From Limisphaerales bacterium (lineage in GTDB: Bacteria; Verrucomicrobiota; Verrucomicrobiia; Limisphaerales; AAA164-E04): a stretch of 64,000 nucleotides of DNA. The stretch covers positions 1-64,000 of the forward strand of contig JAMASS010000005.1 in the NCBI GenBank assembly GCA_024761205.1, in the 5' to 3' direction. A program made the translations under genes and the position numbers. Positions 36,072-62,971 of the stretch are shown one piece after another; the first letter of the stretch is position 1; every line of letters starts with the position of its first letter. The notes beneath the pieces were generated by a model, which saw nothing but the letters and a program-made list of their open reading frames with translations, searched no databases and had not been told where the DNA came from.

Positions 36072-37328
36072 CTATCGCCGATAGGCGCCAAGGTCCGGGG
36101 CATCCGGATTGACATCAGGCCCAAAGTAACGCAACACCACTAAAGGCTCAACATCACTCGTATTCTCGAAAACAACACCTGCTTGAGCAGTGCTTTCCGT
36201 GCAAAACACCTCATCCTCAGTCAACTCGTGGAACCGGATCAACTTGGGACAATCCAAACTTAAATGGTTCATCTTGCCTTTACCCTGAGTCGTGATCAAC
36301 CCGTAGGCGCCCTGATCCTTGATGGTGCATTTGACGCCGGGATCAATGGTCAATTCCTTGGCTGTAAAGTATTGTTTACGGTTGATCTTGCCGTAGACCA
36401 CCCACCGATCAATATAACCCGCATCCGCCGTATCTGCCACCGGGACCGGCTCCAAATAATGGTTGTCCTTAAACGTTGGGTCCACATTGGCCTCCCAATC
36501 GAGTTGCCCGATAATGAAATCCAAGTCTCGATGCTTGCTCTTTGGCATATCCTTTACCAGCAAGGACCACGGCACCTCTCGCCCTTCCACCAAAGACTGA
36601 AACATCCCAAACACATCCGATCCCCACTGGGGCTCATAGGTGCAAAAAGAGCCGGGAGCGTGCAAGATGCCCGGCCCGATCAACCAGCCCGTCCCGGGCC
36701 TGAGCCGATACGCTCTCGAGAGATCCAAAATGCCGTTGTCGCCTCGGTTCCAATTCTCCAAGCATTCTCTGACCTGCTTCTTGGTCGTTCCCGGCTCCAA
36801 CCCCATGAACGTGTAGGGAAAATTGTTGCCCACATTGTTGTGCTGCGGAGGGAAATAATACGATTCAGGCTTGCCCTCCTGCTTCACCAACTTGGCCCAC
36901 TTCTCGGATTGATGCATGTGATGGGGGATCGGGCCCATGTTATCGAAAAACTTCGAGTACACCGGCCACTTGCCATACTTACGCCAGATCCGTTTTCCGA
37001 TGAGGCCTGCTCCCGACTCCTGCACTGCCTGCTGAAGGGTAAACCGTTGTCTGCCAGCGACGACGTAGCTCAAACCTTCATCCGCCGTTCGATTCTCATT
37101 CGCAGCCGGCGTCGTTGACGCAAACCAACGCTCATCAATACCACCACGATTCAAACCAAAGGCATAAAGATCGTCGGGATGCAGTTTCAGCCGCTTCCCA
37201 GGTTGAAGAAAGGACCGCGGCACCCAACACGGGGCTAAGCGAAGCAAGCCCCCCGTATCCTCGAGTTGCGCCTCGACGATCTTTTTCACCTTAGACTTAA
37301 CGGTTCGCAGTGCAGTCACTGTGTTCAT
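36072..37328 (-). CDS. Cupin protein, mannose-6-phosphate isomerase-like
   Basis: 418 residues from the ATG at 37328. It has the bicupin look of type I phosphomannose isomerases: IPHHMHQSEKWAKLV carries the metal-binding histidines and glutamate near residue 140, PYTFMGLEPGTTKKQVRECL follows, and LRPGTGWLIGPGILHAPGS gives the second-motif histidine. A second cupin near residue 320-400 has MNHLSLDCPKLIRFHELTED. It is likely a sugar-phosphate isomerase or sugar-binding relative, but substrate residues cannot be checked here. Stand-alone gene. Confidence 0.75.
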   Translation of the reverse strand: MNTVTALRTVKSKVKKIVEAQLEDTGGLLRLAPCWVPRSFLQPGKRLKLHPDDLYAFGLNRGGIDERWFASTTPAANENRTADEGLSYVVAGRQRFTLQQAVQESGAGLIGKRIWRKYGKWPVYSKFFDNMGPIPHHMHQSEKWAKLVKQEGKPESYYFPPQHNNVGNNFPYTFMGLEPGTTKKQVRECLENWNRGDNGILDLSRAYRLRPGTGWLIGPGILHAPGSFCTYEPQWGSDVFGMFQSLVEGREVPWSLLVKDMPKSKHRDLDFIIGQLDWEANVDPTFKDNHYLEPVPVADTADAGYIDRWVVYGKINRKQYFTAKELTIDPGVKCTIKDQGAYGLITTQGKGKMNHLSLDCPKLIRFHELTEDEVFCTESTAQAGVVFENTSDVEPLVVLRYFGPDVNPDAPDLGAYRR

Positions 37329-37733
37329 AATAAACTCCCCACCACTCTCAAAAAACCTCGGGGACACTACCCGCCCGCCGCCAACACCCGCAAGCAGATT
37401 CTCTCTCGAACACAATCAAGAAAATCAACCCGACGAGCTTGAGCAAAGCACGGCTTCATTTCGAAGCAAGTTTTGAGCGAAACCATGATGAAGTTGCAAA
37501 CAACGATAAACTTGGATAATGCATGAAACTCAGAAATCCGGCAGTCATTTAATCCGCTGTCTTCACGGCCTCCCTAATGGGGCAAAATGTCCGAAGCGCA
37601 AGCCTCCTTCTCCTGTACACCCGCCACTGCAGCATGTAAATAGTTAGTTCTCGTGGATAAGTTGGACCTGCTGTAGGAATCCGTGGCGTAGCATTTATGC
37701 GGCAGCACCTTCAGTGACGGCAACTGCGGTGCG

Positions 37734-38972
37734 TTACGGGGTGCGGTTTCGTTGGCGCAAACGAAGCAGAAAAACCAGCAGCCCGCCCAAGAGTCCGGCC
37801 GTGACCACAAATCGCCACCAAGACCGCTGGCCATCGCCGCTTTTGGGTGCATCCCGGCTTCCGCCGTCCGCCGGACTTTCTTCCGAAACCGGGGCGGTTG
37901 CTTCCGTCGATTCGGAGGGAAGGGCCGCCCCGACGCTTCCAATCTGATCGTTGGTATCAACGTCCGCCGAACCGCCCTCTTCATCCGGCAATCCCGCCGC
38001 CGGCCCGGAAACTTTGGCAGAACTGAAATTGACAATCTCCGGAATCAAGGGCCACAGCTCGGGATATGGTTGTGGCAATCTAGGATAATGAGGATAGAAA
38101 TCGGGATCCGGGGTGTCCGTCTCAATGGATTTCAAGACCCGTTTCGCAAGATCTACAATGTTATAGCTGAGGTTGTCTGCAAAAAGTTTTCCCGGCACTG
38201 TTTCGGTAATAATTTTTTCGAGCATCGGGATTGCCGCCCGCGCTTTCGCTCCGTAACCGGCCAAGGCTTTGAGGGTATCAACGGTGTATTCTCCCGAGGA
38301 CAGCGCTTCCAGGAAGACGGGCAACGCCGCCTCGGACTGAATCCGCCCCAGAACTTTACTTGCTCTCCAAGACTCGGTTGGCAGCAGGTTTATCACCATC
38401 TGCTCAAAACGCTCCGAGCGATAGCCCATCATGACCATTCTTTCCAGAATCTCGGTCTTAAATACCCATTGAAATCCCGAACTGCTGTCCCGTTCTGCTT
38501 GGGTGACCAATAAATCTTCCAAACCCGGAACAGGGGGAGAGGACATGAGCAATGTAACGCAAGCGACACCTCGAATCCCCCCATCCTCGTCGTCCAACAA
38601 CGAAAGCAAGGCTCTTTGAAAGGCGTCGGTATCTTCAATCGGAAGATTCTCATAAAATTCTTCATTAAAACCCTCTTCTCCTGATCTGGCGGCTGCGAAT
38701 CCCAAGACCGCAAACGCCGAAGCTCCTACGGCCTCGCCTCGCAGTTCCGGAGATGCTGATTTTAATGCAATCGTGTGGAGTCTAATGTAATCAACAGGAT
38801 TATTCCACTCTACTGAAGGAGTATCAGGAGGCCCCATGTAAGCACCATCAAAAGTCCTTTTAAAAGTCTCAATCTTCTCCTTATCGGGGAGCTGGATAAA
38901 CTCTTCGACCGTGATGGCGGACAGGCTCGGCATCAGCAAACAAATGGCGAGAAAGACGGATGTTATTTTCAT
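37734..38972 (-). CDS. Exported HEAT-like repeat protein with C-terminal anchor (copy 2)
   Basis: 412 residues from the ATG at 38972. Signal peptide MKITSVFLAICLLMPSLSA. The central part is helical repeat in type: FQRALLSLLDDEDGGIRGVA, RFEQMVINLLPTESWRASKV and LAGYGAKARAAIPMLEKII resemble HEAT/PBS-lyase-like units. A disordered Ser/Asp/Glu-rich stretch (about residues 330-380) leads to a C-terminal membrane segment (FVVTAGLLGGLLVFLL) and a short Arg-rich tail, like a surface-anchoring signal. Closely related to the gene at 39,238; the C-terminal third is almost identical and the N-terminal third has diverged. Probably scaffolding; function unknown. Confidence 0.78.
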   Translation of the reverse strand: MKITSVFLAICLLMPSLSAITVEEFIQLPDKEKIETFKRTFDGAYMGPPDTPSVEWNNPVDYIRLHTIALKSASPELRGEAVGASAFAVLGFAAARSGEEGFNEEFYENLPIEDTDAFQRALLSLLDDEDGGIRGVACVTLLMSSPPVPGLEDLLVTQAERDSSSGFQWVFKTEILERMVMMGYRSERFEQMVINLLPTESWRASKVLGRIQSEAALPVFLEALSSGEYTVDTLKALAGYGAKARAAIPMLEKIITETVPGKLFADNLSYNIVDLAKRVLKSIETDTPDPDFYPHYPRLPQPYPELWPLIPEIVNFSSAKVSGPAAGLPDEEGGSADVDTNDQIGSVGAALPSESTEATAPVSEESPADGGSRDAPKSGDGQRSWWRFVVTAGLLGGLLVFLLRLRQRNRTP

Positions 38973-39155
38973 GGTATAGGTTGGTTTTGAATGCTGATGC
39001 TTTTTTCCATGGGCCACCCCAGCGACCACGGTGTCTCCCTTGTCACCAGGGGATCGTACTGATAGATTATGTTTCCGTTGAGGTAGATTTCATACGCGGG
39101 AAAGCCGTCGTGGTCCCCTCTAATCGAGTAGGTGTTCGTCTCACGATCAATCGTT
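38973..39155 (-). pseudogene. Duplicated 3' end of the large PPC-domain gene
   Basis: Read on the minus strand, the frame gives TIDRETNTYSIRGDHDGFPA, then YEIYLNGNIIYQYDPL and ends QNQPIP before a TGA. The intact gene at 40,494 ends TIDRDANTYSITGDHDGFPA...QNQPIR. It is a 60-codon orphan carried along by the tandem duplication. Like the original, its stop overlaps the ATG of the HEAT-like gene (ATGA). Confidence 0.85.
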
Positions 39156-40680
39156 CGTGGATAAGTTGGACCTGCTGTAAAAATCCGTGGCGTAGCATTT
39201 ATGCGGCAGCACCTTCAGTGACGGCAACTGCGGTGCGTTACGGGGTGCGGTTTCGTTGGCGCAAACGAAGCAGAAAAACCAGCAGCCCGCCCAAGAGTCC
39301 GGCCGTGACCACAAATCGCCACCAAGACCGCTGGCCATCGCCGCTTTTGGGTGCATCCCGGCTTCCGCCGTCCGCCGGACTTTCTTCCGAAACCGGGGCG
39401 GTTGTTTCCGTCGATTCGGAGGGAAGGGCCGCCCCGACGCTTCCAATCTGATCGTTGGTATCAACGTCCGCCGAACCGCTCCCTTCATCCGGCAATCCCG
39501 CCGCCGGCCCGGAAACTTTGGCGGAACTGAAATTGACAATCTCCGGAATCAAGGGCCACGCCGCGGGAGATGTTTCTTCTCCCGATCTGATTTTTCCATA
39601 CCACCTAAGCTCATTAGAATAGACATTGGGATCCGGGGTGTCCGTCTCAATGGATTTCAAGACCCGTTTCGCAAGACCTACACTATTATAATTGCCGATG
39701 CCTACCCAAAATTTTCCCGCCGTCTCCGGTTCGGTAATAATTTTTTCGAGCATCGGGATTGCCGCCCGCGCCTTCGCTCCGTAACCGGCCAAGGCGATGA
39801 AGGTAGACCCGGTGCTTTCTCCTGGGGATCCTCCCGAGGACAGCGCTTCCAGGAAGATGGGCAACGCCACCTCGGATTTCATCCACCCCAGAACTCTACT
39901 TGCTCTCCCAGACTCGGTTGGCAGCAGGTTCATCACCATCTGCTCAAAACGCTCCGAGCGATAGCCCACCATGGCCATTCTTTCCAGAATCTCGCTTTGT
40001 ATCTCGAGATTGTCTTCGCGTTCCAAGTGGGTGAGCAGCAAGTCTTCCATCCCCGGAACGGGAGGCGTAGAATGGACCAATGCCGCGAGGGCGGGAACCC
40101 GAGCATTCGAAATTTCGTCGTCCAACAACGAAAGCAAGGCCCTTTGAAAGGCGTCGGTGTCTGCCACCGAAAGATTATCATAAAATTCTTTAGCACGCTC
40201 TTTATCACCCTCTATTCCTAATACTCTTGAATTGAGGAGCATTACCCCTGGGACCACATAAAATGACCTGTCTGCGGCCGCTTCTCGCACTTCTGGAGAC
40301 GCTGATCTCATTCCAATCGTGAGGCATTGGAGATATTCCATAGGGTCATCTAGCGTCACCTGACTTTTATCAATTCCTCCAATATTGAAGAATTTGAGCA
40401 TTTCCTCATCGGGGAGTTTGGAAAACTCTTCGACCGTGATAGCCGACAGGCTTGGCATCAGCAAGTAAATGGCGAGAAAGACGGATGTTATTTTCATCGT
40501 ATAGGTTGGTTTTGGATGTCGATAGAGGTATCTGATTTACCCCAAAGCGATTTGGGAGCCTTTCCAGTTCGCAAGGGGTCGTACTGATACACCCTGGTTC
40601 CGTTAAGGTAGATTGCATACGCGGGAAAGCCATCATGGTCCCCCGTAATCGAGTAGGTGTTCGCGTCACGATCAATCGTT
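39156..40680 (-). repeat. Tandem duplication, copy 1 (upstream)
   Basis: The 1,525-base partner of 37652-39155; the 21-base length difference corresponds to seven codons in the HEAT-like gene. It joins the intact large gene at its upstream side, so this is the original and 37,652 the derived side, or the reverse by unequal exchange. Confidence 0.85.
39238..40497 (-). CDS. Exported HEAT-like repeat protein with C-terminal anchor (copy 1)
   Basis: 419 residues. Same plan as the gene at 37,734: signal peptide MKITSVFLAIYLLMPSLSA, helical repeats (LAGYGAKARAAIPMLEKII, RFEQMVMNLLPTESGRASRV), an acidic low-complexity linker, a C-terminal membrane segment and the tail RLRQRNRTP. Residues 20-60 differ strongly from copy 2 (FSKLPDEEMLKFFNIGG against FIQLPDKEKIETFKRTF). 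The ATG overlaps the stop of the large gene upstream, so the two are translationally coupled. Confidence 0.8.
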   Translation of the reverse strand: MKITSVFLAIYLLMPSLSAITVEEFSKLPDEEMLKFFNIGGIDKSQVTLDDPMEYLQCLTIGMRSASPEVREAAADRSFYVVPGVMLLNSRVLGIEGDKERAKEFYDNLSVADTDAFQRALLSLLDDEISNARVPALAALVHSTPPVPGMEDLLLTHLEREDNLEIQSEILERMAMVGYRSERFEQMVMNLLPTESGRASRVLGWMKSEVALPIFLEALSSGGSPGESTGSTFIALAGYGAKARAAIPMLEKIITEPETAGKFWVGIGNYNSVGLAKRVLKSIETDTPDPNVYSNELRWYGKIRSGEETSPAAWPLIPEIVNFSSAKVSGPAAGLPDEGSGSADVDTNDQIGSVGAALPSESTETTAPVSEESPADGGSRDAPKSGDGQRSWWRFVVTAGLLGGLLVFLLRLRQRNRTP

Positions 40681-42989
40681 ATGGTGATTGTGTAATTAAT
40701 CCGTGGACCAACGACAAGCGGATTGCTCACCTCGCACTTGCAGACAATTTCAAGTATTTTGGGCGACGAACCGGGATAGTTCGCCTCTATCTCCCTATCG
40801 CTCATATTACTACTCGTTGCGCGAGCAATCATAAACGGTGCGCCTAGCGTGGTGTCCGCCAAGGCCGCCGCTGTCAGGTTGCCCGCGGCGTCCAGCGAAG
40901 TGGCGGAATCAAACAATTTTGTCTCTCCAACGTAGAACAGGTGCCCGCTGTCCCCCCTCCCGTCGCCGTTCGTGTCGAAGGCGTCCGCAACCAGGCCATG
41001 GGGATTGTGGTCTCGGTCGGCAATCACCTTGAATTTTTGCTGCGTTCGGTAGGAACCATTCTCATTCCAGGTAGCCCGCCCTCCCGCCATCCGGTTGTCT
41101 CCTTTGAACACCCTATCGGTCCGGAAGGGGTTACGATCGTTCTCTGGATGGTCCACGTTATTGTGCGGGATGAAGGTGTTGATGGTCACTGAGTCCGTGG
41201 GCGGCGGGTCCAGGGGTTCAAGGAGGATTTCCAGAGTCGTCGGGTACCCACAATCCTGAATGTTGGTGACGGATGCAAAAACCCAGACTGGCAAGGGCCT
41301 CGCGGTGGGGTTTGTCAGAATGCCCAACACTTCCTCGTAGACGCCAAACTCGTCATCCTCCACGCAAGAAGGACTGACTGATTCGAACTCATCGTGCAGG
41401 GCATTGACATGATGGGTGCCTCTAAATCTTTGCCTCGGGGTGCCAACATCCCAATCGACCCGATCGTTGAAATCCGGGTCGGTATTCGGACTCGTCCAGT
41501 AGCAGTACTCTGCGGTGGTGATCCTGATTTTCACTCGCACGCGCTTCAACGAACACAATCCGTAAATCAATTTGTTGGCAAAGACGGATTGCTGACCATC
41601 TCCCGCGGTCACGCTCACTCCTTCCAGGGAACACGCACCAATGGTCCGCGTTGAGTTGGTGCTGGTTAAATTACCCCCACAATATGTGACGTCCACGGTT
41701 TCCAATACAAAGGGTAGCGGCCCGCTTGCCAATCTGGCGCTGGGCCCGCTTGCCAACCTGGCGCTGCTTTGACCCGAAGGGCCGGCGGCGGAGGCGTCCA
41801 GGGGGTTGCGGCCGGCGAGCACTTCCTGCATGTCGCTGGTTCCGTCGCCGTCGCTGTCCAACACGGGAGGGGCGGGAGGGGCGGGCGCTTGCCCTCCCAC
41901 ATTCACGGTAAAAGTCCGTGTAAAGGAGGACAGTGCTCCGGATGCGCTATTGTCGTTGACGATCAGGCTCACCCGAGCCGTGCCCCATCCGCCCGCCGCC
42001 GGAGAAATCCGCAAGGAACGCATTCTTCCAGTGCCGCTGAGAGTCAGTCCGCTTAGGGGCAGCAGCACGGCGTTGTCCGTACTCAGCGTTAGCGTCAGTG
42101 CCGAGATCGGATCGTCCGGATCATCCAGGGTAAAACGAACCGAGCGCGCCGGGACGTTGTCCGGAATCGTGACATCGGAAATCGCGCTGATCGTCGGTGG
42201 TTGGTTAAGGCTGCCGATGGGAGGCGGTGGTGGCGGCAGCAGCAGCGGTGGTGGTGGGTTGGGGTTGTCGTTCGGCGTGAAGCCGTAGTAAATATCGTAA
42301 TCACCGATGGCAGCGTTGTTATAGCCGCGGACTTTGACGGTGTAGGTGCCGGCGGCAACGGCGTGCCCGATGGCGAAGTTGTAGCCGTCGCCGCTGTCGT
42401 CGTCGTAAGTCAATTCATTGCCGAGACTATTCAGCAGGTAGCCGTAGGTGTCGATTCTGTCGTCGGTGTATGTGGTGTAAGCCCAGATGGTTCCCGCACA
42501 GGGAGCGGTGACGGTGTATGTCTCATCGTCGCCGGCCTCGTCAATGGAATCGTTGTAGGAATCGGAAGAAGCAACGCAAGGATTAGGGTTGGAAGTCGGC
42601 GGTGGCGGCGGCGGCGGTGGGTTGGGGTTGTCGTTCGGCGTGAAGCCGTAGCGGAGGGTGTAACTGCCGGTGTCGATGGAACAATAGTGGTTCACTTTGA
42701 CGTAGTAGGTGCCGGCGGTGACTTCGTGGGAAATGTTGAAGTTGTGGCCGGTGCCGCCGTCGTCGTTCCAGGTCAATTCGTTACCGTTGTCGTCGTATAA
42801 GCGGCCGTAGGTGTCGGTCTCGTCGCCGGTGTATTCGGTGTAAGCCCAGATGGTTCCCGCACAGGGAGCGGTGACGGTGTATGTCTCATAGTCGCCGGCG
42901 TAGTCGATGGAATCGGTTGCAGCCCTGTCAAAGGAGTTGCACGCAAGTGCTGGTGACGCAACCGGTAAAATTGAAAAGACGATTCCCAT
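40494..42989 (-). CDS. Large secreted protein with two PPC domains and Ig/calcium-type segments
   Basis: 831 residues from the ATG at 42989, which has GGAAAGAGAG just upstream; the frame is open to 43,172. After a short signal (GIVFSILPVASPALA) come two bacterial pre-peptidase C-terminal-like domains of about 110 residues, both with DETYTVTAPCAGTIWAY or a close variant and ending YGFTPNDNPNPPPP. Pro tracts separate them. Next is a Ig/cadherin-like domain (NQPPTISAISDVTIPDNVPA), a calcium-binding EF-type loop DSDGDGTSDMQEVLAGRNPL, and a C-terminal region of about 400 residues with many cysteines (YCGGN, CSLEGV, CKCEV) that vaguely recalls DUF3238. No protease or glycosidase motif. It heads the three-gene operon with the HEAT-like proteins and is probably surface-exposed. 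Confidence 0.8.
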   Translation of the reverse strand: MGIVFSILPVASPALACNSFDRAATDSIDYAGDYETYTVTAPCAGTIWAYTEYTGDETDTYGRLYDDNGNELTWNDDGGTGHNFNISHEVTAGTYYVKVNHYCSIDTGSYTLRYGFTPNDNPNPPPPPPPPTSNPNPCVASSDSYNDSIDEAGDDETYTVTAPCAGTIWAYTTYTDDRIDTYGYLLNSLGNELTYDDDSGDGYNFAIGHAVAAGTYTVKVRGYNNAAIGDYDIYYGFTPNDNPNPPPPLLLPPPPPPIGSLNQPPTISAISDVTIPDNVPARSVRFTLDDPDDPISALTLTLSTDNAVLLPLSGLTLSGTGRMRSLRISPAAGGWGTARVSLIVNDNSASGALSSFTRTFTVNVGGQAPAPPAPPVLDSDGDGTSDMQEVLAGRNPLDASAAGPSGQSSARLASGPSARLASGPLPFVLETVDVTYCGGNLTSTNSTRTIGACSLEGVSVTAGDGQQSVFANKLIYGLCSLKRVRVKIRITTAEYCYWTSPNTDPDFNDRVDWDVGTPRQRFRGTHHVNALHDEFESVSPSCVEDDEFGVYEEVLGILTNPTARPLPVWVFASVTNIQDCGYPTTLEILLEPLDPPPTDSVTINTFIPHNNVDHPENDRNPFRTDRVFKGDNRMAGGRATWNENGSYRTQQKFKVIADRDHNPHGLVADAFDTNGDGRGDSGHLFYVGETKLFDSATSLDAAGNLTAAALADTTLGAPFMIARATSSNMSDREIEANYPGSSPKILEIVCKCEVSNPLVVGPRINYTITITIDRDANTYSITGDHDGFPAYAIYLNGTRVYQYDPLRTGKAPKSLWGKSDTSIDIQNQPIR

Positions 42990-43687
42990 GAAAACTCTCT
43001 TTCCAAAGATTGGCGGAGTAGTTTGAGCGATGGTCGTATCGCAGTGGAAAAGTTGCTTGAGACGCTTGCGGAGGGGTTTCCCATCTCCGATGCAGCGGCG
43101 CGCCGTTCTGATTGATGAGTGCCAGAAGTGCGCAATGATGACTCCAAACAGGTTAATCTCCGTTAAGTTCAATATCGCTCAGCCATTTTGTGTATCTTTC
43201 TAGCAAGGTCAAGGGGAAGGCGGAGCGGACGGTTTGCCTGCATCACCTGCGGCAATTCGGGGCCTTTCACGCTGTATGCGGATGATTTTTCGCGGAAGAT
43301 GCCCGGCACGAATTGTGACGGCGGGCGTTTGCTGAAGGAGAGGGGATGGCTGTATCGGCTTTCCGGCGGACGACTTCCGAAGCCGGAGGGGGCGATCGGG
43401 TGGCCGAGCGGGGGGAGTCGATTGCTTCTAATAACGGCGCCAATCGACCGACGCATCGCGAATCCGGACGAAGGCCTCGGCCGCCGGGTGTTCTTGCTCC
43501 ACGACCGAGTCAAGCAGCTCTCATGGACGCAACGGACCGCAACGAGTTGTGGTGCAATCCGGCTGCCGTGAATGACCACTCACTTGTTCCGTGGTGAGGT
43601 TCGGGAGAGCTTGGAACAATTGCCATTGCGGATTTCGGGAAGACATTGTAGGCTGCTTTAAGGTCTCAAACCCCATTTTATACCGAT
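42990..43687. other. Upstream region of the surface locus, no recognised gene
   Basis: About 700 bases between divergent genes. Overlapping frames of up to 136 codons exist on both strands (43,169-43,579 minus; 43,188-43,571 plus), mirroring each other, so at most one is real. Neither product is recognisable and neither has a clear ribosome site. Promoters for the PPC gene (minus) and the GH42-like gene (plus) should lie here. Confidence 0.4.
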
Positions 43688-45772
43688 ATGTACTTTGGAG
43701 TGGATTATCATCCGGAGCATTGGGTCCATCCCTACGCAGGAACCCCAGAAAACCCCGAAGCACGGTGGGAAGAGGACGCTGCCCTCATGGTCGCAGCCGG
43801 TGTCAATGTAATTCGCGTCGGTGAGTACGTCTGGGGTTTATGCGAGCCAACGGAAGGACAATACGATTTCGAATGGCTCAAGCGGCTCATGGATGTCATG
43901 AAGAGCCATGATATCAACGTTGTTTTAACGACTCCCACTGCCGCTCCCCCCATCTGGCTATCCCGAAAGCATCCAGAAATTCTTCCAATTGACGAGCAAG
44001 GTGTAACCCTTCATGAAGGCACCCGCCACGCCGCCTGCTACAACAGTGATCTTTTTTGGAACTACTGCAAAAAGATCGTCAAAGCCATGGCTACTAGCTT
44101 GGGAGGCCATGACCAATTGATCGCTTGGCAGATCGATTCCGGCGTTGGCGGTCACACTACGGAATTTTCATTCAATGAAGGAACCAAGCGAGATTGGCAC
44201 GCCTGGCTTCAGGCAAAATATGAAACAATCGACCGCCTGAACGAGTGCATGGGAACCCGCTTCTGGGGTCAAATAGTTAGCGAGTGGAAAGATGTGCCTA
44301 TGCCCCGCGTTGCACCAACCGTGCACAACCCCGCACTGGTGCTCGACTGGATGCGGTTTTCCAGCGACACGATCGTGGCCTTCATCCGAATGCAAGCGGA
44401 ACTCCTCAAAGAGCTCACGCCAAATATCCCCGTCACCACCATGATGCGAGCCTTGTCCCGTCACTACGACCACTTCGATGTCGCAGAACAACTCGATTTC
44501 GTCTCCCTCGATAGCTACGCCACGATCAAATCCAAGGCAGCTGTCAACGCCATGGACATCGATATCCTACGATCGCTCAAAAAGCAGGACATTAAGACAC
44601 CCGACGGGAGCAATTACGGCTTCTGGGTCATGGAACAGAAGGCCGGAAACGTCAACTGGCAGGACGTCAACTCCTTAGTCCGTCCCGGGGTCGTCCGCCT
44701 TTTCACCTATCAACTGATCTCGCGCGGCGTTGACGGCGTCCTCTACTTCTTTTGGCGGCAACCCCGGATCGGATCGGAGAAATTCTACGGGGGCGTACTC
44801 AATCACCGCGGGAAGGGTGACAATCGGACCTATCTAGAGGTCCGTCAAATTGGCGAAGAATTGAAGTTGCTGAGCCCCGTGATCAAAGACACCAAAGTCG
44901 TCGCCGAAGCCTGTATTCTCTACACTCACGACAACGCCTGGACGCTCAAACAAAAAATGCAGCCCAACCGGCACTTCCACCTCTGGGATCATATGCTCAG
45001 CTTCTACAGTGCCTTCCATGATCGCAACATCCCCGTGGATTTCGCGCGTCCTACAGATGATCTGTCAAAATACAAACTCGTCGTGGCCCCGTCACTCCAC
45101 CAACTGGCCTGGGGCGAAGCCGACCGCCTAAAACTTTACGTGCAAAACGGCGGCATCTTGATTGGCACCTTCAACACGGGACTCGTTGATGAACACCATA
45201 TTGCTCCCGACGATGGCATGCCACTCAACCTAACGGACCTATTCGGCTTAGAAGTGATCGAATTCGACCCGATCCCTCCGGATGAAGAGAATCATCTGAA
45301 CATGAAAGGCGCCTTTCCAACCAGCCACCTTCACCCGGCTCAACTGTGGTGCGACGTGATTGAGCCTAAAGAATGCGAAGTCCTGGCGACCTTCTCCAAG
45401 GATTTCTATGCTGGCAAACCCGCTCTTACCAGCAACACTTTCGGCCTCGGCCGAGCGATTTATATCGGCACGATGAGCCACAGCCACTTTTACCTCGATT
45501 TGGTGACTTGGCTCCGCCAAATCAGCGGCCTGTCCGGTCTGCTCAAGGTCCCCGAAGGGGTCGAAGTCAGCCTGCGTCAAAAGGACGACACCAAACTTTA
45601 TTTCCTCCTGAACCATCAGAACTCATCCGTCCGCCTCCAATTTTACAAACCTGTTCACGACTTTCTCACTGGCAATACATTTCAAGGTGCCTATGATCTG
45701 CCTGCCCACGGCGTTTTAGTCATTGATGAACACCCAACACAAACCACTGCGAACCCAACGGCCCAGGCATGA
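43688..45772 (+). CDS. GH42-like beta-galactosidase family protein with altered acid/base motif
   Basis: 694 residues, normal GH42 length. The N-terminus MYFGVDYHPEHW with WEEDAALMVAAGVNVIRVGE and YVWGLCEPTEGQYDFEWL is typical of the TIM barrel. The family normally has WQIDNE(F/Y)G, whose Glu is the acid/base; here it is WQIDSGVGGH, with Gly152 in that place. The nucleophile is kept: FWVMEQKAGNVNW with Glu316. The trimerisation domain follows (DNAWTLKQKMQPNRHF, then KLVVAPSLHQLAWG). No signal peptide. It may use another acid (a Glu sits eight residues on, in TTEFSFNE), act on an activated substrate, or only bind sugar. The DUF721 gene overlaps its end by 47 bases. Confidence 0.87.
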   Translation: MYFGVDYHPEHWVHPYAGTPENPEARWEEDAALMVAAGVNVIRVGEYVWGLCEPTEGQYDFEWLKRLMDVMKSHDINVVLTTPTAAPPIWLSRKHPEILPIDEQGVTLHEGTRHAACYNSDLFWNYCKKIVKAMATSLGGHDQLIAWQIDSGVGGHTTEFSFNEGTKRDWHAWLQAKYETIDRLNECMGTRFWGQIVSEWKDVPMPRVAPTVHNPALVLDWMRFSSDTIVAFIRMQAELLKELTPNIPVTTMMRALSRHYDHFDVAEQLDFVSLDSYATIKSKAAVNAMDIDILRSLKKQDIKTPDGSNYGFWVMEQKAGNVNWQDVNSLVRPGVVRLFTYQLISRGVDGVLYFFWRQPRIGSEKFYGGVLNHRGKGDNRTYLEVRQIGEELKLLSPVIKDTKVVAEACILYTHDNAWTLKQKMQPNRHFHLWDHMLSFYSAFHDRNIPVDFARPTDDLSKYKLVVAPSLHQLAWGEADRLKLYVQNGGILIGTFNTGLVDEHHIAPDDGMPLNLTDLFGLEVIEFDPIPPDEENHLNMKGAFPTSHLHPAQLWCDVIEPKECEVLATFSKDFYAGKPALTSNTFGLGRAIYIGTMSHSHFYLDLVTWLRQISGLSGLLKVPEGVEVSLRQKDDTKLYFLLNHQNSSVRLQFYKPVHDFLTGNTFQGAYDLPAHGVLVIDEHPTQTTANPTAQA

Positions 45773-59263: not shown

Positions 59264-62200
59264 ATGAATCATCTATCCAAAAATCGCGCGCCATTTCGGA
59301 GGGCTCTCAATGCGATTCAATGGATCTTCATTTCGTCCCTTCTTCTCCGAAGCGCAAACGCAGTCGACTGGGAGGATCACGAAGGTTACCGACTCGCTCG
59401 GCTTACAACACCAGCAGAAAGCCAACCCGGCTTCACGACCATTTCCCCGGAAAAAGCCGGAATCCGCTTCCGTAACGATCTTGCTGATCATCGCTCATTA
59501 GAGAGACGGGGACTCCTCAGCGGTTCCGGCGTCGCCGCTGGAGACGTCGACGGAGACGCCTTGCCTGACCTCTATTTCTGCGGACTCGATAACCACAACC
59601 AACTTTACCGCAATCTGAGCAACTGGACCTTCGAGGAAATCCCCCCTACCGGAGGCATCGACTGTAACGGCACTGACGCCACTGGCGCCGCCTTCGCCGA
59701 CATGGACGGGGACGGGGATCTCGATTTGATCGTGTCCGCTCTGGGCAATGGCACACGCCTTTTCACCAACGACGGCCAAGCACACTTCACCGAAACCACC
59801 GCAACTGCAGGCATCGGTTCGCAACTGGGAAGTATGTCCCTCGCCATCAACGACATTGATGGCGATCAAGATCTTGATCTCTACGTCGCTAATTTTCGTC
59901 CCACAACCATCATGGACGAAGCGTCCACCCGCTTCTCCGGCCGCAATATCAACGGCATCCCAACCGTCACCCACATCAACGGCCAACCAACCACATTACC
60001 TCAATATACCAACCGGTTCATCATTTCGCCCACACGGAAGATCCTTGAGCTCGGTCAAGTCGACCAATTGTTCCTCAATGACGGAACGGGAAAATTCTCG
60101 CTGCTTTCCTTCACCTCGGGAAAATTCCTTGATGAAGACGGCCAGCCGCTCAAAGAACCGCCGAGGGATTGGGGCCTCGCCGTTCAGATGCGTGATTTCA
60201 CAGGCGACGGCGCACCGGACATTTATGTCTGTAATGACCTCTACACGCCCGATCGTATCTGGATCAATCGTGGAGACGGCTCCTTTCGGGCAATGGCCAA
60301 TTTAGCCCTGCGAAATACTAGCACCTTCTCCATGGGTTCGGATTTTGCCGACATCGATCGCGACGGAGACCTCGATTTTTTTGTCGTCGACATGCTCAGT
60401 CCCGATCACCGCAAACGTCATGTCCAAGTAGCGATGTCCCCACCCCCACCCCATCCTGTCGGGCAGTTTGATCACCGCCTTCAGATCCTGCGCAACACTC
60501 TTCAACTCAATCGAGGCGACAACACCTACGCAGAGATCTCCCAACTCAGCGGCGTTGAAGCCACGGATTGGTCTTGGGGCCCCATTTTTCTGGATGTCGA
60601 CCTCGATGGCTACGAAGACATTCTGGTCACCAACGGCCAACTTAGGGACTACCAAAACATTGATCACGCCATGCGCATGGAAGCGATCCGCCAAGAGCGG
60701 AAGATCTCGCTCGCAGAATTTCGCGAACTGACCAGCCAATACCCCAACCTCAGCACCCCGAATATCGCCTATCACAACCAAGGTGATCTCACCTTCCGGG
60801 ACGTCAGCACCGCCTGGGGATTCGACAAGCACGGCATCTCACAAGGCATGGCACTGGCCGACCTCGACAACGACGGCGATCTTGACATCGCACAAAATAA
60901 CTTGAACGACCTGCCAACCTTGCTGCGAAACAATGCCTCGCGCCCGCGAACTCGCGTTCAATTGAAGGGACGTCCGCCAAACACACGGGGCATCGGCGCT
61001 CAAATTGAAGTGACTGGCGGACCAGTCCGCCAGTCCCAAGAAATTCTCAGCGCGGGCCGCTATATGTCCTCCGATCAGCCCGTGCGCTCATTTGCTGCCG
61101 GATCGGCCGAAGCAACCTTATCCATCAGTGTCACCTGGCGCTCCGGAAGAGTAACGACTATCAAGGACATCCCCGCCAACACACTGTGCGAGATTCAAGA
61201 GCCCGACAGAGGTCAAGAAACCAAAACCACAGATCACAACTCAAATATCAGCAAGCCTCTCTTCCAAGGCGCAAGCTCCTGGCTTGACCATCATCACTTT
61301 GATGAACCCTTCAATGATCTGGAGCGCCAGCCTCTGCTACCCAATCGATTGAGCCAAGCCGGACCTGGATTAACATGGACCGATCTCAACAGCGACGGCT
61401 GGGACGATCTAGTCATCGGCACCGGCCGAGGCGGAACCATTGCCGCCTTTGAGAATCAAGGCGGCAAAGCCTTTCGTCCCAGGCAAAACCGCATCACCCG
61501 CCAGCCCTCAGCCCGTGACACAACCGCCATTCTTCCTTGGGAGACGTCAGAACTCCTGATCGGCTTCAGCAACTACGAAGACGGCTCCCCGGCAGGAAAC
61601 GCCCTAACCGCTTTCAGTTGGCTCAAAGACAGTCCCCGCACCATCCTAAATTCGAAACCTTCCAGTATCGGTGCTCTTTCAACAGCTGATTGGGATCAGG
61701 ACGGAGACCTCGATCTCTTTATTGCCGGTCGAGTTTTACCAGGGCGTTATCCCGTGGCCGTAGACTCAATGCTTCTCAAAAACCACAAAGGCAATTTACA
61801 GATCGCTCACACCTTTGAGGAACTTGGTCTCGTTACTGGATCGATTTTCTCCGACCTCACCGGAGACGGTCGGCCTGAGTTGATTGTGACTCGAGAATGG
61901 AACACGCTGAAAGTCTTCACTGGAAACATGGACTCCCCGCAAGATGTGACGGAACAATGGCGACTCGATCGGCTCTCCGGATTCTGGAATGGCATCGAAG
62001 CCGGAGATTTCAACAATGACGGACGCATGGATTTGGTGGCGTCCAACTGGGGGCATAATCACAAGTATGAGCTCGCAGCGTCACAGCCGCTTCGTCTCTA
62101 CTATGGCGATCTCAACAACGACGGACAATGGGATCTCGTCGAGTCCTATTACCACCAATTGCTAGATCAAGAACTTCCAGTGCGGTCTCTGAGAACAGTG

Positions 62201-62971
62201 GGACTGGCGCTGCCCTCAATTCGTCAGCGACTTCGCACGTTTCAGAACTACGCGGACAAAACAATCCTATCCATCTACGGCGCCCTGCTAGATAGCGCCA
62301 ACAGCCTCAGCGTGAATCATTTGGCACATACCGTCTTTCTCAATCAAGGCCAACATTTCACCGCTGAGCCCCTGCCGACTCTGGCCCAAACGACGCCCGC
62401 CTTCGGAATTGCTGTCGCTGACTTTGACTGTGACGGAAATGAAGATCTATTCCTCTGCCAAAACTTCTTCGCCACCGCCCCCGGCACTCATCGCTACGAC
62501 GCCGGGCGCGGCCTCCTCCTCCTGGGTGATGGATCCGGTGAATTCGCCCCCATACCCGGCCACCTCAGCGGGATCAGCGTTTACGGCGAACAACGGTCGA
62601 CAGCCACCGCTGATGTGAACCACGATGGTCGCACGGACTTGGTGATTTCGCAGAATGGTGCGGCAACCAAATTGTTCTTAAATCAATCGCCCAAACAAGG
62701 GCTCCGCATCCGCCTGAAGGGACCCCGCAATAACCCGAACGCCATCGGATCGCACCTTCGGCTTGTTAGCCAAACCCATAGCGGACCAACGCGGGAACTC
62801 CACCGTGGTTCAGGCTGGCTAGCGGTCAACAGTCCCTGCCAAGTTCTCGCTCGAACAGCCAATGAGTCCGAAGTTTGGGTGCGTTGGCCGGACGGCCACG
62901 AGACAATCACACCCCTCCCAGACGAAGTATCGGTCATCACGATCGATTCCTCCGGCCAGATCCTACCCTAG
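59264..62971 (+). CDS. Large secreted FG-GAP/VCBS protein with two ASPIC-UnbV modules
   Basis: 1,235 residues. Signal peptide within FRRALNAIQWIFISSLLLRS-ANA. A first beta-propeller is built of FG-GAP repeats with the calcium loop DxDGDGDLD, for example AAGDVDGDALPDLYFCG, FADMDGDGDLDLIVS, INDIDGDQDLDLYVANF and FADIDRDGDLDFFVVDM. An ASPIC-UnbV-like module sits at about 570-645 (VQLKGRPPNTRGIGAQIEVT). A second propeller follows (WTDLNSDGWDDLVIGTG, TADWDQDGDLDLFIAGR, VADFDCDGNEDLFLCQ), and a second ASPIC-UnbV-like end (IRLKGPRNNPNAIGSHLRLV, then WVRWPDGHETITPL). Such proteins are abundant in PVC bacteria; they probably bind ligands outside the cell. The following gene is a close relative. Confidence 0.92.
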   Translation: MNHLSKNRAPFRRALNAIQWIFISSLLLRSANAVDWEDHEGYRLARLTTPAESQPGFTTISPEKAGIRFRNDLADHRSLERRGLLSGSGVAAGDVDGDALPDLYFCGLDNHNQLYRNLSNWTFEEIPPTGGIDCNGTDATGAAFADMDGDGDLDLIVSALGNGTRLFTNDGQAHFTETTATAGIGSQLGSMSLAINDIDGDQDLDLYVANFRPTTIMDEASTRFSGRNINGIPTVTHINGQPTTLPQYTNRFIISPTRKILELGQVDQLFLNDGTGKFSLLSFTSGKFLDEDGQPLKEPPRDWGLAVQMRDFTGDGAPDIYVCNDLYTPDRIWINRGDGSFRAMANLALRNTSTFSMGSDFADIDRDGDLDFFVVDMLSPDHRKRHVQVAMSPPPPHPVGQFDHRLQILRNTLQLNRGDNTYAEISQLSGVEATDWSWGPIFLDVDLDGYEDILVTNGQLRDYQNIDHAMRMEAIRQERKISLAEFRELTSQYPNLSTPNIAYHNQGDLTFRDVSTAWGFDKHGISQGMALADLDNDGDLDIAQNNLNDLPTLLRNNASRPRTRVQLKGRPPNTRGIGAQIEVTGGPVRQSQEILSAGRYMSSDQPVRSFAAGSAEATLSISVTWRSGRVTTIKDIPANTLCEIQEPDRGQETKTTDHNSNISKPLFQGASSWLDHHHFDEPFNDLERQPLLPNRLSQAGPGLTWTDLNSDGWDDLVIGTGRGGTIAAFENQGGKAFRPRQNRITRQPSARDTTAILPWETSELLIGFSNYEDGSPAGNALTAFSWLKDSPRTILNSKPSSIGALSTADWDQDGDLDLFIAGRVLPGRYPVAVDSMLLKNHKGNLQIAHTFEELGLVTGSIFSDLTGDGRPELIVTREWNTLKVFTGNMDSPQDVTEQWRLDRLSGFWNGIEAGDFNNDGRMDLVASNWGHNHKYELAASQPLRLYYGDLNNDGQWDLVESYYHQLLDQELPVRSLRTVGLALPSIRQRLRTFQNYADKTILSIYGALLDSANSLSVNHLAHTVFLNQGQHFTAEPLPTLAQTTPAFGIAVADFDCDGNEDLFLCQNFFATAPGTHRYDAGRGLLLLGDGSGEFAPIPGHLSGISVYGEQRSTATADVNHDGRTDLVISQNGAATKLFLNQSPKQGLRIRLKGPRNNPNAIGSHLRLVSQTHSGPTRELHRGSGWLAVNSPCQVLARTANESEVWVRWPDGHETITPLPDEVSVITIDSSGQILP

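What the first reader, a model, noticed from the sequence alone, without database searches (positions are those of the whole stretch)
37652..40680. 1.5-kb tandem duplication of a surface-anchored HEAT-like gene
The unit includes the last 60 codons of the large gene upstream, so the junction is visible at about 39155. The anchor third of both copies is almost identical, while the N-terminal third has diverged. This pattern is expected if the anchor region is homogenised by gene conversion or under strong constraint and the N-terminus is under diversifying selection, as in variable surface proteins.
Basis: seen in the sequence. Interest (0 to 1): 0.7.

Follow-up and report, generated by a model that had tools for sequence, protein, structure and literature searches.

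The report
Tandem HEAT-like genes, partly homogenised
A bacterial membrane protein gene sits next to an older, partly rewritten copy of itself; the end half of the two copies has been made nearly identical by recent recombination while the front half is old and very different, which is a fairly ordinary gene-duplication pattern and not shown to be a variable surface antigen.

Summary
On the minus strand, unit A (39156-40680, 1,525 nt) and unit B (37652-39155, 1,504 nt) lie head to tail. Each carries the last ~61 codons of the upstream 892-aa gene plus a HEAT-like gene (419 and 412 aa, 70% identical). Synonymous divergence falls in steps along the gene: dS 0.84 (aa 26-166), 0.08 (aa 167-312) and 0.012 (aa 313-419). 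The 85 nt from the stop codon into the 3' flank differ at only 2 positions. The near-identical end therefore reflects recent recombination, probably gene conversion, not protein constraint. The N-terminal part is not positively selected (dN/dS 0.56); it is simply old. The only dN>dS signal is in the middle and linker (dN/dS 2.1). The orphan tail of the large gene in unit B keeps its frame with dN/dS 0.36, which hints that both tails diverged while functional and were later joined or cut down. "Surface-anchored" is unproven: a signal-peptide, solenoid, linker, transmembrane layout and no sorting motif. The whole ~6-kb locus is absent at the same site in two genus mates, so it is accessory. A toxin/immunity-like orphan-module reading is possible but weak.

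The parts
39156..40680 (-). Unit A: last ~61 codons of the large gene plus HEAT-like gene A plus 3' flank (1,525 nt)
   Evidence: repeat search and alignment
37652..39155 (-). Unit B: orphan tail of the large gene plus HEAT-like gene B plus 3' flank (1,504 nt)
   Evidence: repeat search and alignment
39238..40497 (-). HEAT-like gene A, 419 aa; its ATG overlaps the stop of the large gene (ATGA). Signal peptide ~1-19, helical solenoid ~22-290, disordered linker ~305-387, transmembrane helix ~388-416
   Evidence: ORF; model (mean pLDDT 61); weak HEAT_2; signal peptide read from the sequence
37734..38972 (-). HEAT-like gene B, 412 aa, 70% identical to A
38969..39154 (-). Orphan tail of the large gene (61 codons plus stop): no in-frame stop, no indel, no start codon at its beginning; dN/dS 0.36 against the intact tail
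40494..43172 (-). Large upstream gene, up to 892 aa: predicted secreted, two 121-codon direct repeats (DVUA0089/PPC-like), TSP3 repeat, C-terminal DUF3238-like domain
37652..38055 (-). Homogenised 3' end of unit B (partner 39156-39559): exact runs of 223, 74, 40 and 36 nt, extending into non-coding DNA
37416..43687 (.). Accessory ~6.3-kb stretch absent between the same two flanking genes in two genus mates; exact edges not definable

Best explanation
An accessory operon of one secreted multidomain protein followed by a probably co-translated, membrane-anchored alpha-solenoid (HEAT-like) protein now carries a second, older version of [tail of the large gene + HEAT gene] directly downstream. The two modules diverged a long time ago (high synonymous divergence in the tail and N-terminal region), most likely while both large-gene tails were still functional. 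That means either two divergent alleles were joined by recombination, or a longer duplication later lost the body of its second large gene. Afterwards recombination between the adjacent copies (gene conversion) overwrote the 3' part, from about codon 167 to the end of the unit: most recently the linker, transmembrane helix and 3' flank, earlier and patchily the middle. Shown: the duplication, the steps in dS, identity in non-coding flank, the intact orphan frame. Inferred: the history, gene conversion as the mechanism, and the function (probably an extracytoplasmic protein-binding scaffold working with the large secreted protein).
For: dS falls from 0.84 (aa 26-166) to 0.08 (167-312) and 0.012 (313-419); contrasts of the first with the other two P 1e-10 and 2e-15. 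Four-fold sites differ at 1 of 64 in the anchor, and the 85 nt from the stop codon into the 3' flank differ at 2. Homology stops exactly at the unit edges. The tail has dS 0.68, not different from the N-terminal region (P 0.58), and dN/dS 0.36 with no stop or indel. Simulating a tail that was dead from the start gives no stop and so low a ratio in 2-6% of runs, against 73-86% if both tails were functional. The locus is missing at the same place in two genus mates. The predicted fold is a helical solenoid with disordered linker and C-terminal helix.
Against: Only two sequences exist, so conversion cannot be tested against an outgroup. The 2-6% result for the dead-tail model is suggestive, not decisive, and depends on a simple substitution model. 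dS near 1 is poorly estimated. The near-identical stretch could in principle be an assembly effect, because one exact run is 223 nt.
Confidence: 0.6

Rival explanations
1. In situ tandem duplication of exactly this 1.5-kb unit, followed by ordinary divergence of the N-terminal part and repeated gene conversion of the 3' part; the tail in unit B was dead from the start.
For: Simple; units abut with no insert and ~1 nt of shared sequence at the junction. Homogenised 3' end.
Against: The orphan tail has no stop or indel in 61 codons and dN/dS 0.36; joint probability (no stop, low ratio) 0.02-0.06 under this model.
Confidence: 0.25
2. Variable surface antigen: the N-terminal region diversifies under positive selection while the anchor is kept constant.
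For: N-terminal protein identity is low; there is a dN>dS signal in aa 167-312 (dN 0.177, dS 0.083; neutral simulation P 0.009).
Against: N-terminal dN/dS is 0.56. No third copy or silent cassette in the genome. No sorting signal and no other protein with the same anchor. Genus mates lack it.
Confidence: 0.08
3. Polymorphic-toxin-like orphan module: the DUF3238 C-terminal domain is an effector, the HEAT-like protein its immunity partner, and unit B a displaced effector tail with its old immunity gene.
For: The layout resembles orphan cdiA-CT/cdiI modules (PMC3150448). Imm-HEAT immunity proteins are described (PMC3482391). Overlapping genes, accessory locus, purifying signature in the orphan tail.
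Against: DUF3238 has no known toxic activity and no paper in the library mentions it. The orphan tail is 61 codons, not a whole domain. The HEAT protein appears exported and membrane-anchored, unlike the mostly cytoplasmic immunity proteins. No padloc hit; no delivery or processing motif was identified.
Confidence: 0.1
4. Assembly artefact: one locus with two alleles from a mixed population was laid end to end, or the 3' ends were collapsed to a consensus.
For: 92-contig draft, possibly a metagenome bin; one exact run of 223 nt.
Against: The units differ in ~30-50% of positions over much of their first half. Each carries its own differences inside the homogenised end. The large-gene tail occurs once complete and once truncated at a sharp junction. 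The contig is 226 kb and estimated contamination is 0.3%.
Confidence: 0.05

Closest known systems
Tandem duplicates under partial gene conversion (concerted evolution)
   Same: Adjacent paralogues with a block of near-identity that ignores coding/non-coding borders next to strongly diverged blocks
   Different: The unit also carries a truncated, still open piece of the neighbouring gene with a purifying-like signature
Orphan cdiA-CT/cdiI and rhs-CT/rhsI modules (PMC3150448)
   Same: Fragment of the 3' end of a large secreted-protein gene followed by its small downstream partner gene, placed behind the intact pair
   Different: No CdiA, Rhs or VENN features identified; only 61 codons of tail; partner protein appears exported and membrane-anchored; C-terminal domain is DUF3238 of unknown activity
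Imm-HEAT immunity proteins (PMC3482391)
   Same: HEAT-type solenoid encoded directly behind a large modular protein
   Different: Those are described next to Tox-REase-7; most immunity proteins are cytoplasmic, whereas this one has a signal peptide and TM helix
DUF3238 (PF11579; PDB 3c5p, BAS0735)
   Same: Tail motif GDHDGFPAY and flanking strands match (E 4e-5; Pfam 21.4 bits, cut-off 21.1)
   Different: Here it is the C-terminal domain of a large secreted protein; the known structure is a short protein of unknown function

Membership tests
HEAT-repeat proteins (HEAT_2, PF13646) | Score over the curated Pfam cut-off | tested here: not met
   18.8 and 16.2 bits against 27.7
HEAT-repeat proteins (HEAT_2, PF13646) | Array of paired helices forming a solenoid | tested here: inconclusive
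   ~17 short helices in aa 22-304, pLDDT mostly 65-89 there; Foldseek matches are HEAT/ARM/alphaRep proteins but E is at best 0.019
Tandem duplicates with gene conversion | Near-identity at synonymous and non-coding sites in one block, high dS in another | tested here: met
   dS 0.012 versus 0.84; 2/85 differences in the flank
Tandem duplicates with gene conversion | Paralogues within a genome more alike than orthologues between genomes in the converted block | not testable with these tools
   No orthologue found
Variable surface antigen | Positive selection or cassette switching in the exposed N-terminal part | tested here: not met
   N-terminal dN/dS 0.56; no silent cassettes in the genome
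Sortase/exosortase-type surface anchor (PEP-CTERM, LPXTG, GlyGly-CTERM and similar) | Recognised C-terminal sorting motif | tested here: not met
   No NCBIfam hit up to E 1; anchor has W-W-R plus TM helix plus basic tail; no other protein in the genome clearly shares it
Polymorphic toxin/immunity orphan module | Fragment of the 3' end of the large gene plus partner gene behind the intact pair | tested here: met
Polymorphic toxin/immunity orphan module | C-terminal domain is a toxin | not testable with these tools
   DUF3238 has no known function; needs expression tests

The most novel reading that the evidence does not exclude
The large gene encodes an effector with a DUF3238 toxin domain, the HEAT-like membrane-anchored protein is its envelope-side immunity partner, and unit B is an orphan tail/immunity module; the dN>dS in the middle of the solenoid marks the binding surface.
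Probability: 0.1. Interest if true: 0.6.

Novelty: new member of a known kind. Interest (0 to 1): 0.27.

Why it matters
Mainly as a clean worked example. It shows how to tell gene conversion from constraint and from diversifying selection with only two copies, using synonymous and flanking non-coding sites. If the orphan-module reading were right, it would give a first functional idea for DUF3238 and an unusual exported HEAT-type immunity protein.

Tried and rejected
Relatives of the HEAT protein: none in 57 near relatives except a generic HEAT protein in G054 (32% identity over 167 aa); none in 288 other genomes of the phylum, in genome contigs or in viral contigs. The peptide patterns used in the two collection scans were short and partly from the signal peptide, so their negatives are weak. 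Relatives of the large gene's C-terminal domain: none in 19 relatives, genome contigs, viral contigs, plasmids or phages; DUF3238 occurs in 1 of 289 genomes of the phylum, this one. Model of the DUF3238 domain: pLDDT 43, not used. Exact insertion edges: not definable, because the genus mates' intergenic stretches do not align with the window or with each other. Mobile-element remnant at the island edges: neither edge is repeated elsewhere in the genome. Variable residues as a helix-surface pattern: no enrichment at polar helix positions. An E. coli record was fetched without need and not used. The organism was not identified by name.

Full report
Observation. The repeat search and an alignment of the two stretches confirm a head-to-tail duplication on the minus strand: unit A 39156-40680 and unit B 37652-39155, meeting without an insert. 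Each unit begins with the last 61 codons of the upstream gene (40494-43172), continues with a HEAT-like gene (A 39238-40497, 419 aa; B 37734-38972, 412 aa; 70% identical) and ends with the same 3' flank. The repeat is far beyond chance: one exact run of 223 nt, with further exact runs of 74, 49, 42, 40, 37, 36 and 31 nt.

Identity profile. Windows of 50 nt are 96-100% identical over most of the last ~490 nt of the units, 82-96% over most of the middle, 44-70% over most of the region after the signal peptide, and 86-94% over the signal peptide. Counting synonymous and non-synonymous changes separately (Nei-Gojobori): aa 26-166 dN 0.47, dS 0.84; aa 167-312 dN 0.177, dS 0.083; aa 313-419 dN 0.021, dS 0.012. 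In the anchor, 1 of 64 four-fold sites differs, and 2 of the 85 nt that run from the stop codon into the 3' flank differ. Protein constraint cannot keep synonymous and non-coding sites identical, so recent recombination between the copies, most simply gene conversion, is the better reading. The dS steps are strongly supported (P 1e-10 and 2e-15 for the first region against the second and third, 0.04 for the second against the third).

Selection. The N-terminal part gives dN/dS 0.56: an old divergence under weak constraint, not diversifying selection. The middle plus linker gives dN/dS 2.1 (bootstrap P(dN>dS) 0.99; neutral simulation P 0.009), and its ratio of amino-acid-changing to silent codons (40:3) differs from that of the N-terminal part (74:23, P 0.02). 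With two sequences and a mosaic history this is a lead, not a demonstration. The changes are not concentrated on polar helix positions.

The orphan tail. In unit B the tail of the large gene has no start codon at its beginning, yet keeps an open frame with no indel, and its stop overlaps the start of gene B as in unit A. Its dN/dS against the intact tail is 0.36 and its synonymous divergence (0.68) is not distinguishable from that of the N-terminal region (P 0.58). Simulations in which the tail was dead from the start reproduce both the missing stops and the low ratio in 2-6% of runs; with both tails functional it is 73-86%. This mildly favours a history in which the modules diverged while both were parts of functional genes and were then joined, or in which a longer duplication lost the body of its second large gene.

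Protein architecture. Pfam gives only sub-threshold HEAT_2 hits. The AlphaFold model (two sequences, mean pLDDT 61) shows helices from 22 to ~304, a disordered stretch of ~70-80 residues and a long C-terminal helix at 388-416. Foldseek lists HEAT/ARM/alphaRep structures, none significant (best E 0.019). With an N-terminal signal peptide (read from the sequence) this predicts a single-pass membrane protein with the solenoid outside the cytoplasm. No sorting motif was recognised and no other protein in the genome clearly has this tail, so 'surface-anchored' is not shown; if the cell has an outer membrane, the likely site is the periplasm (inference).

Context. The large gene reads as a secreted protein with a DVUA0089-type region, a TSP3 repeat and a C-terminal domain matching DUF3238 and PDB 3c5p. 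In two genus mates the flanking genes (36072-37415 and the GH42 gene 43688-45772) are direct neighbours, 519 and 348 nt apart, without any of this. The locus is therefore accessory in the genus, gained here or lost there. No orthologue was found in any collection searched, with the limits noted under Tried and rejected.

Comparison. It behaves like a tandem duplicate under partial gene conversion. It also looks, in layout only, like the orphan modules of CDI and Rhs systems (PMC3150448), and HEAT-type immunity proteins have been described (PMC3482391). The toxin activity that would define that class cannot be tested here and other features are missing, so it is kept as a rival.

Verdict.

Noticed in passing
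42234-42552 and 42597-42915: Internal tandem repeat of 363 nt (121 codons) in the large gene, 76-90% identical by block, in the region of the DVUA0089/PPC-like match, with proline-rich linkers.
   Followed up: partly
37416-43687: About 6.3 kb between a gene without Pfam match (cupin-like by eye) and a GH42 beta-galactosidase gene that are direct neighbours in two genus mates.
   Followed up: yes
43173-43687: ~515 nt with no recognised gene and no other copy in the genome; overlapping ORFs of 127 and 136 aa on opposite strands; the one tested has no Pfam match.
   Followed up: partly
L021 (G001:C1:1761360-1763429): The GH42 gene of the genus mate with a single contig has one in-frame TAA, so it may be a pseudogene or hold a sequencing error.
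   Followed up: no
59264-62971: 1,235-aa protein with FG-GAP repeats and an ASPIC/UnbV domain; a weaker PliI-like match (lysozyme inhibitor, E 2.5e-7) in its second half.
   Followed up: no
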